Shown: piece by piece, positions 22,482 through 23,101 of the stretch
Layout of the letters: the number at the start of each line of letters is the position of its first letter
Numbering within the stretch: position 1 is the first letter of the stretch
From: a virus
Virus record (IMG/VR): IMGVR_UViG_3300023198_001440
Coordinates: 1 to 23,101 of that record
Strand: one strand, 5' to 3'
Length of the DNA stretch: 23,101 nt
Made by a program: the position numbers and the translations under genes
Notes under the pieces: model-generated
Told to the model about the DNA's origin: nothing
The model's database searches: none
The model's input: the letters and a program-made list of their open reading frames with translations, nothing else

Positions 22482-22562
22482 TGAGACAGGAGAGATTCGA
22501 ACTCCCATAGAATTAACGACGAATTTACAGTCCGCTGATTTCACCTGCTTACCATCTGCCCC
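22482..22562 (-). tRNA. tRNA-Tyr (GTA)
   Basis: The acceptor is GGGGCAG/CTGTCTC with several wobbles and discriminator A. The D-stem is TGGT/ATCA with GG in the loop. The anticodon arm is GCGGA-CTGTAAA-TTCGT (anticodon GTA), with a 12-nt variable region as expected for bacterial tRNA-Tyr. The T-arm is GGGAG-TTCGAAT-CTCTC. No encoded CCA. Confidence 0.85.
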
Positions 22563-22567
22563 ATATG

Positions 22568-22656
22568 CGGAGAGAGTAGGACCCGATCCCAAGACAACTA
22601 AATGCCCCCTAGTTTTCAAGACTAGTCGCCGCTCCAATGCAGCTGCTTCACTCTCC
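22568..22656 (-). tRNA. tRNA-Ser (TGA), somewhat divergent
   Basis: The acceptor is GGAGAG/CTCTCC with discriminator G. The anticodon arm CTAGT-CTTGAAA-ACTAG is perfect and gives anticodon TGA. The variable region is long, as in class II tRNAs. The T-arm is weak (TTGGG-ATCGGGT-CCTAC) and the D-arm is long and poorly paired. No encoded CCA. Confidence 0.7.
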
Positions 22657-22661
22657 GTATG

Positions 22662-22736
22662 TACTAACAGAGGGACTCGAACCCTCGAAAAACAGCGCTT
22701 AAAACTGTCGTGTATTCCCACGTCCACCATGCTAGC
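22662..22736 (-). tRNA. tRNA-Leu (TAA) with short variable loop
   Basis: The acceptor is GCTAGCA/TGTTAGT with discriminator A. The D-stem is GTG/CAC with a GG-containing loop. The anticodon arm is ACAGT-TTTAAGC-GCTGT (anticodon TAA) and the T-arm GAGGG-TTCGAGT-CCCTC is perfect. The variable loop is only TTTTC, whereas bacterial tRNA-Leu normally has a long variable arm. No encoded CCA. Confidence 0.85.
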
Positions 22737-22742
22737 AATTTG

Positions 22743-22817
22743 TACTCTTAGAGAGACTCGAACTCTCGAAAATTGGGTCCTAAAGCCAATGCGTATTCCC
22801 ACGTCCGCCATAAGAGC
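22743..22817 (-). tRNA. tRNA-Leu (TAG) with short variable loop
   Basis: The acceptor is GCTCTTA/TAAGAGT with discriminator A. The D-stem is GCG/CGC with the same D-loop (GACGTGGGAATA) as the neighbouring Leu tRNA. The anticodon arm is TTGGC-TTTAGGA-CCCAA (anticodon TAG) with a C-C mismatch next to the loop. The T-arm is GAGAG-TTCGAGT-CTCTC. The variable loop is TTTTC. Its similarity to the adjacent tRNA-Leu suggests tandem duplication. Confidence 0.85.
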
Positions 22818-22987: not shown

Positions 22988-23059
22988 TACCTCTAGAAAG
23001 ATTCGAACTCTCATCTCACGGTCCGTAGCCGCGCATTCTCTCCGTTGAACTACAGAGGC
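22988..23059 (-). tRNA. tRNA-Arg (ACG)
   Basis: The acceptor is GCCTCTG/TAGAGGT with discriminator A. The D-stem is GTTC/GAAT with a GG-containing loop. The anticodon arm is CGCGG-CTACGGA-CCGTG (anticodon ACG; A34 is normally deaminated to inosine by host TadA). The T-arm is GAGAG-TTCGAAT-CTTTC. No encoded CCA. Confidence 0.9.
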
Positions 23060-23070
23060 ATTTAAAATAG

Positions 23071-23101
23071 AAGTGCCGACGGGGCTCGAACCCGCATTTT
23101 C
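23071..23101 (-). tRNA. Partial tRNA (3' part only, identity unknown)
   Basis: The minus strand at the window edge gives a T-arm GCGGG-TTCGAGC-CCCGT followed by the acceptor 3' strand CGGCACT and a T in the discriminator position. The anticodon lies outside the window, so identity cannot be read. Confidence 0.75.

What the first reader, a model, noticed from the sequence alone, without database searches (positions are those of the whole stretch)
22662..22817. Two tRNA-Leu genes with class I (short) variable loops
Both Leu tRNAs (anticodons TAA and TAG) have a 5-nt variable loop, TTTTC, yet keep a Leu-like D-arm and discriminator A. Bacterial tRNA-Leu normally has a long variable arm that serves as an identity feature. 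They share an identical D-loop, suggesting duplication. The tRNAs may be minimised, be charged by a relaxed synthetase or have another role, such as resisting host anticodon nucleases.
Basis: partly seen in the sequence, partly recalled or inferred. Interest (0 to 1): 0.55.

Follow-up and report, generated by a model that had tools for sequence, protein, structure and literature searches.

The report
Phage leucine tRNAs without long arm
Two leucine tRNA genes in this phage lack the long extra arm that textbook bacterial leucine tRNAs carry, and many other large phages turn out to do the same for leucine but almost never for serine or tyrosine.

Summary
Both tRNA-Leu genes (22662-22736 TAA, 22743-22817 TAG, minus strand) are class I, with a 5-nt variable loop, TTTTC. 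In an arm-length-neutral sample of 120 IMG/VR loci, 64 of 185 tRNA-Leu have 4-7 nt and 121 have 10-20 nt, against 1 of 55 tRNA-Ser and 1 of 28 tRNA-Tyr at 4-7 nt. Named phages of Vibrio, Proteus, Acinetobacter, Citrobacter and Cronobacter share it, as does Lbo-JY46 with the same gene order. By a strict pattern, sampled Bacteroidota and Pseudomonadota genomes nearly lack it, while at least 17 of 80 Actinomycetota genomes have it. Sixteen members covary as one cloverleaf. A classifier blind to anticodon and arm calls both window tRNAs Leu. Best reading: working leucine tRNAs charged by host LeuRS, which in E. coli reads A73 and the D/T elbow, not the arm (PMC9976931 passages). SerRS needs the arm, which fits the isotype bias. 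Whether arm loss is neutral or evades arm-reading toxins is open. Charging was not tested, and the window pair has exchanged the A15-U48 Leu identity pair.

The parts
22662..22736 (-). tRNA-Leu(UAA), class I: V loop TTTTC, D-loop GACGTGGGAATA, G1-U72, A73; CCA not encoded
22743..22817 (-). tRNA-Leu(UAG), class I: V loop TTTTC, same D-loop, C31/C39 mismatch, G1-U72, A73; CCA not encoded
22568..22656 (-). tRNA-Ser(UGA) with a long variable arm, missed by ARAGORN; only a sub-threshold tRNA-Sec match (25.6 bits, 22570-22655); ends set by hand from pairing
22482..22562 (-). tRNA-Tyr(GUA) with a longer variable region (9-nt insert relative to the Rfam consensus)
22988..23059 (-). tRNA-Arg(ACG), class I as expected for Arg
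23070..23101 (-). 3' part of a further tRNA cut off by the end of the contig; isotype unknown
   Evidence: sequence read directly

Best explanation
They are functional leucine tRNAs of a large phage, probably of a Flavobacteriia host, that have lost the class II arm and fold as class I tRNAs. Shown by sequence: cloverleaf kept by compensatory changes, leucine-type core and A73 kept, arm absent, some tertiary-core bases different from long-arm Leu. Inferred: the host LeuRS charges them because bacterial LeuRS reads A73 and the D-loop/T-loop elbow, not the arm or anticodon; they then decode UUA/UUG and CUN codons when host tRNAs are limiting or attacked. Because SerRS depends on the arm, and TyrRS probably too, only leucine tRNAs are free to lose it, which matches the isotype bias across phages. 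The first two rivals below are about why the arm was lost and are compatible with this.
For: Comparative cloverleaf: 96.9% of cells paired, 18 of 20 pairs with two-sided changes, 0 of 500 shuffles as good, slid controls 32-48% paired. Blind classifier (leave-one-out 125 of 131 for long Leu, 78% overall) ranks Leu first for both window genes, by 11.1 and 7.4 log units. Their nearest tRNAs are other Leu, and the best match outside short Leu is a long-arm Leu for both. Isotype bias in the arm-neutral sample: 4-7 nt in Leu 64 of 185, Ser 1 of 55, Tyr 1 of 28 (one more Tyr has 8); in 50 phage loci chosen for a short Leu, Ser 1 of 39, Tyr 0 of 18. E. coli LeuRS rules: passages of PMC9976931. No tRNA-synt_1 match in 11 phage records. 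In 23 ORFs that I chose, all six Leu codons are used, TTA most (199 of 545).
Against: No charging data. The window pair has G15-C48 (if the D-loop insert is placed before 15; C15/C48 by strict numbering) instead of the A15-U48 pair that is an E. coli Leu determinant, and the 8 canonical Leu tRNAs examined in two Chryseobacterium genomes keep A15-U48. TAG has a C31/C39 mismatch and folds poorly alone. 10 of 119 phage loci carry both arm classes. The classifier is weaker on other short Leu: called Leu in 29 of 56 C13-type and 22 of 29 other phage cases, 47 of 102 C13-type bacterial cases. In an archaeon LeuRS does read the arm (PMC9976931 passage). Host and its LeuRS are not known.
Confidence: 0.75

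Rival explanations
1. Arm loss is selected because host antiphage toxins recognise or cut class II tRNAs at the variable arm; arm-less Leu tRNAs stay usable, while Ser and Tyr cannot follow because their synthetases need the arm.
For: MenT3 needs the long variable loop for strong modification of tRNASer (PMC11541572 passages). VapC52 cuts a tRNASer in the variable loop and contributes to phage defence (PMC13273310 passages). Phages use their own tRNAs against tRNA-targeting defence (PMC10264068, PMC11555353 passages). 7 of 11 such phage records have an RNA_ligase match over cut-off, without a control set of phages.
Against: No such toxin shown in the hosts concerned; both toxins are mycobacterial. 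MenT3 disfavours the tested long-arm tRNALeu because of loop orientation, and tRNALeu is not mentioned in the VapC52 paper. Many phages keep long-arm Leu (121 of 185), T5 among them. Actinomycetota genomes carry class I Leu.
Confidence: 0.2
2. Neutral drift: relaxed constraint plus small deletions in phage tRNA genes; no advantage.
For: E. coli LeuRS tolerates arm loss; short Leu occur with two different cores.
Against: Outside the seeds only 1 of 245 Bacteroidota and 0 of 199 Pseudomonadota genomes match the class I pattern, so the arm seems to be under selection there; some core bases differ along with the loss.
Confidence: 0.35
3. The genes carry another amino acid or are anticodon-switched copies of other class I tRNAs.
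For: Class I fold; G15-C48 is the usual Levitt pair of non-Leu tRNAs (recalled); over all 194 distinct short Leu, the nearest tRNA outside the set was a long Leu in only 84.
Against: For the window pair the nearest tRNAs are Leu and the blind classifier says Leu.
Confidence: 0.08
4. Decaying pseudogenes.
For: TAG folds poorly alone and has one stem mismatch.
Against: TAA differs from its L068 relative at 6 of 75 positions, which fall as three paired double changes on my reading of alignment A1. The same C31/C39 mismatch is present in Lbo-JY46.
Confidence: 0.05
5. The host itself uses class I tRNA-Leu and the phage copied it.
For: Two Chryseobacterium genomes hold a class I Leu(UAG).
Against: There it lies in a dense extra tRNA array, and the 8 canonical Leu genes examined are long-arm. 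The one further Bacteroidota hit is in such an array too. 61 of 61 Bacteroidota genomes match the long-arm pattern.
Confidence: 0.07

Closest known systems
Canonical bacterial class II tRNA-Leu (E. coli, Chryseobacterium)
   Same: Anticodon, A73, A14, G18G19, A20a, 3-bp D-stem with 13/22 not a standard pair
   Different: No long arm; U21 where the 8 Chryseobacterium genes examined have G21; G15-C48 (or C/C) instead of A15-U48; D-loop one base longer
Class I tRNA-Leu of Actinomycetota genomes (mainly UAA and CAA)
   Same: Leu anticodon, A73, 5-nt variable loop
   Different: Those mostly have C13, G21, A9, C12-G23 and V such as CCAGT; the window has G13, U21, G9, G12-C23, V TTTTC
Cluster-encoded tRNALeu(TAG) with short variable loop in Mycobacterium mucogenicum-clade tRNA gene clusters (PMC6582537, passages)
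   Same: Short-loop Leu in a tRNA gene cluster beside a normal long-arm gene elsewhere
   Different: One case noted in passing in Actinomycetota
Human mitochondrial tRNALeu(UUR)
   Same: Leucylated without a long arm (PMC9976931 passage)
   Different: Organellar enzyme, proposed contacts in acceptor and anticodon stems
Leu-Leu-Ser tRNA block of Leptolyngbya phage Lbo-JY46 (PP438436)
   Same: Same order TAG, TAA, Ser(UGA), both Leu class I
   Different: About 64% identity per Leu gene; shorter D-loop and U48

Membership tests
Canonical class II tRNA-Leu | Long variable arm (10 nt or more) | tested here: not met
   V = TTTTC, 5 nt
Canonical class II tRNA-Leu | A15-U48 Levitt pair (E. coli Leu determinant) | tested here: not met
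   G15-C48 or C15/C48 depending on placement of the extra D-loop base
Leucine tRNA (isotype) | Leu anticodon UAA / UAG | tested here: met
Leucine tRNA (isotype) | A73, A14, G18G19, A20a | tested here: met
Leucine tRNA (isotype) | Overall sequence assigns to Leu without anticodon or arm | tested here: met
   classifier rank 1 for both
Leucine tRNA (isotype) | Charged with leucine by LeuRS | not testable with these tools
   needs aminoacylation
Class I tRNA | 4-5 nt variable loop in a conserved cloverleaf | tested here: met
   covariation on 16 sequences
Actinomycetota-type class I tRNA-Leu (C13/G21 core) | C13, G21, A9, V such as CCAGT, ACAGT or ATGTT | tested here: not met
   G13, U21, G9, TTTTC
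U21/U-rich-loop class I tRNA-Leu (grouping made here) | U21 with a U-rich V loop | tested here: met
   20 distinct U21 sequences incl. both window genes; V mostly ATTTT, TTTTC, GTTCT; the U21 enrichment itself is modest, p = 0.035
Defence-evading phage tRNA | Resists a host tRNA-targeting effector | not testable with these tools
   no effector or host known

The most novel reading that the evidence does not exclude
Large phages repeatedly convert their leucine tRNAs, and only those, from class II to class I as an immune-evasion step. The arm is a handle used by host tRNA-attacking toxins, and leucine is the one class II isotype whose synthetase lets the phage drop it. The window pair goes furthest, having also exchanged the A15-U48 Leu pair, which may make it a poor target of host factors while still accepted by a tolerant LeuRS.
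Probability: 0.2. Interest if true: 0.85.

Novelty: new variant of a known kind. Interest (0 to 1): 0.6.

Why it matters
The rule that bacterial-type Leu, Ser and Tyr tRNAs are class II is broken in about a third of sampled phage tRNA-Leu, and almost only for Leu. That gives a natural, many-times-repeated experiment on which parts of tRNALeu the synthetase reads, and a testable prediction about defence systems that read the variable arm. Annotation that relies on a long arm may mislabel such genes.

Tried and rejected
Alternative fold with a long arm: impossible with 5 nt between stems and not seen on folding. Recent tandem duplication: not favoured, 54 of 75 identical and TAG closer to a Vibrio phage gene. 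Phage-encoded LeuRS: no tRNA-synt_1 match in 11 records (the window, a fragment, was not in that search). Host copy: class I Leu in Chryseobacterium sits in an extra tRNA array, not among the canonical genes examined. Two class I patterns gave 0 and 8 loci; of the latter, three (L068, L110, L125) hold a Leu tRNA on my reading. A protein near the array had one relative only. Plasmids gave two records with weak hits. The closest phage by capsid protein, Chryseobacterium phage MA9V-3, has two tRNA matches, both called Gln, none Leu. In T5 the one Leu gene in the 25-kb stretch fetched is long-arm.

Limits of the counts. Among the 56 Leu genes of those loci that do not match the pattern, 27 are short. 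Relatedness among the loci was not corrected. The named phage loci were fetched by similarity to the window pair or its surroundings and are biased to short Leu: I fetched nine of the 40 records listed (242 matched at E up to 10, many by short pieces); eight of the nine have a short Leu, Vibrio phage Hades a long one. No long-arm control pattern was run over the Pseudomonadota and Actinomycetota sets.

Literature: (one library of open papers; listings and passages seen). The only specific statement found on a short-loop bacterial tRNALeu is in PMC6582537. PMC2474678 says in figure legends that some Tyr, Leu and Ser tRNAs of its 571 have short variable arms, without naming which in the passages seen. 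Term searches inside PMC13015707, PMC12482277 and PMC10264068 for variable loop or arm gave none.

Full report
WHAT IS THERE. The window is a 23,101-base virus record. Its major head protein is 61% identical to a protein of Chryseobacterium phage MA9V-3, so a Flavobacteriia host is likely but inferred. At its right end, all on the minus strand, lie tRNA-Arg(ACG), tRNA-Leu(UAG), tRNA-Leu(UAA), an unannotated tRNA-Ser(UGA), tRNA-Tyr(GUA) and the end of a further tRNA. Both Leu genes have the 5-nt variable loop TTTTC, as reported. Ser and Tyr keep longer variable regions.

STRUCTURE. Sixteen class I tRNA-Leu (window, L068, Lbo-JY46, Vibrio phage SJ1, Proteus phage RP7, five further metagenomic viruses, two Chryseobacterium arrays) align with few gaps. 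For the cloverleaf, 96.9% of 320 cells form standard pairs, 18 of 20 pairs show changes on both sides, no shuffle of 500 reaches this, and slid partners give 32-48%. The sequences were chosen as tRNAs by ARAGORN, so some pairing is built in; the covariation is the informative part. The two window genes agree at 54 of 75 positions, with the agreement in the D-arm (16 of 18), V loop (5 of 5) and T loop (7 of 7), and little in the anticodon stem (2 of 10). That looks like a shared tertiary core rather than a fresh copy.

HOW COMMON. ARAGORN found 851 tRNAs there: Leu 64 with 4-7 nt and 121 with 10-20 nt; Ser 1 of 55 with 4-7 nt; Tyr 1 of 28, and one more of 8 nt. Measured from the raw pattern without ARAGORN, 38 matches have 4-7 nt and 93 have 11-18 nt, none between. 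38 loci hold a short Leu, 10 of them beside a long one. Among named phages, 20 of 22 tRNA-Leu in ten fetched regions are short, in nine of the ten: Lbo-JY46, Vibrio phages SJ1, X1, PG07 and 1.081.O, Proteus phage RP7, Acinetobacter phage vB_AciJM_313, Cronobacter phage LPCS28 and Citrobacter phage Ci1. These regions were found by similarity to the window, so this is not a rate. Vibrio phage Hades, fetched in the same way, and T5 have a long-arm Leu.

HOSTS. With the same pattern restricted to 4-5 nt, 3 of 247 Bacteroidota genomes match; two are the seed genomes, and the third sits, like the seeds, in a dense extra tRNA array. With a long-arm gap, 61 of 61 match. In Pseudomonadota only the seed of 200 matches. 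In Actinomycetota 17 of 80 match, one being the seed. In the genome scan 118 of 120 hits were called class I Leu, mainly UAA and CAA. In one complete Actinomycetota chromosome both matches to the arm-neutral pattern are class I. So phages of Bacteroidota-like and proteobacterial hosts carry a tRNA class that sampled genomes of those phyla almost lack by this pattern, while many Actinomycetota seem to have it natively.

TWO CORES. Most short Leu of the phage and bacterial sets (169 distinct) have C13 with G21, mostly A9 and C12-G23, and V loops such as CCAGT or ATGTT. A second group (20 distinct, including the window) has U21, mostly G9 and G12-C23, and mostly U-rich V loops such as ATTTT. The second group's D-arm otherwise looks like that of long-arm Leu, and the nearest tRNA to each window gene outside short Leu is a long-arm Leu, which suggests arm loss from a class II ancestor. 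The U21 link is modest among genes not chosen by the pattern: 8 of 14 non-C13 short against 6 of 29 long, p = 0.035. For short Leu as a whole the nearest outside tRNA is a long Leu in 84 of 194, so the origin of the C13 group is open.

LEUCINE IDENTITY. PMC9976931 (passages) summarises E. coli work: A73, A15-U48, G18G19, A20a and the D/T contacts matter; the arm's sequence and folding do not; tRNALeu lacking anticodon arm and long arm stays active. In an archaeon the arm is read. Among 27 short viral Leu not matching the pattern, A73 27, A14 27, A15-U48 26, GG 23, A20a 23. The window pair keeps A73, A14, GG and A20a but not A15-U48. Aligned with its relatives it reads G15-C48 (13 A-U and 3 G-C in 16 sequences; the three are one related group, perhaps one event), or C15/C48 by strict numbering. 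Eight canonical Leu tRNAs from two Chryseobacterium genomes keep A15-U48. This is the main doubt about charging. A classifier trained without short Leu and without anticodon or arm length puts Leu first for both window genes, but does so for only 29 of 56 C13-type and 22 of 29 other short phage Leu.

MECHANISM. Most likely the genes supply leucine tRNAs charged by the host enzyme; no tRNA-synt_1 match was found in 11 records with such tRNAs. The isotype bias follows if LeuRS ignores the arm while SerRS needs it (PMC7609411 and PMC11541572 passages) and TyrRS probably does (recalled). Why the arm is lost is not shown. Neutral loss is the simplest; evasion of arm-reading toxins is the bold reading. 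MenT3 needs the long loop of tRNASer, though it disfavours the long-arm tRNALeu tested. VapC52 cuts a tRNASer in the variable loop and contributes to phage defence. Phage tRNAs are known to counter tRNA-targeting defence. RNA_ligase matches over cut-off occur in 7 of 11 of these records, without a control.

VERDICT. It is a new variant of a known kind: tRNA-Leu in class I form, recurrent in phages.

Noticed in passing
window 22568-22656 (-): tRNA-Ser(UGA) missed by ARAGORN, with a non-standard T loop (ATCGGGT in place of TTCRANY); Lbo-JY46 has the same kind (GTCGGGT) at the same place in the array.
   Followed up: partly
window 22662-22736, 22743-22817, 22988-23059: All three of these tRNAs have a G1-U72 first pair; 9 of 16 aligned class I Leu do too.
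   Followed up: partly
window 22743-22817 and L005 6176-6248: The same C31/C39 mismatch in the anticodon stem of tRNA-Leu(UAG) in two diverged phages.
   Followed up: no
L151, L177, L192, L205 and other viral loci: tRNA-Ile(UAU) with a 22-24 nt variable region and, in L151, L177 and L192, a very small D-arm; 7 of 29 tRNA-Ile in the sample have 21-24 nt (anticodons of the other three not looked at).
   Followed up: no
L005 8945-9028; L068 307-393; L110 4633-4719, 6852-6936: tRNA(CAU) with a long variable region in phages that also carry class I Leu.
   Followed up: no
L424 7940-13881 and L425: Two Chryseobacterium genomes hold an extra dense tRNA array; in L424 it is followed by a protein that reads like a T4-type RNA ligase (my reading, not searched), suggesting a tRNA backup and repair island.
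   Followed up: partly
genome loci L262-L379: Actinomycetota genomes commonly carry class I tRNA-Leu, mainly for UUR codons; I saw no paper on this beyond PMC6582537 in my searches.
   Followed up: partly
L005 (PP438436): Lbo-JY46 is labelled a Leptolyngbya phage but has Bacteroidota-like promoter motifs (recalled consensus) and its tRNA block resembles this window; its host label may deserve a check.
   Followed up: no
L450, L451 (MA9V-3): Two tRNA-Gln(UUG) calls of identical sequence with a 26-nt variable region in Chryseobacterium phage MA9V-3.
   Followed up: no
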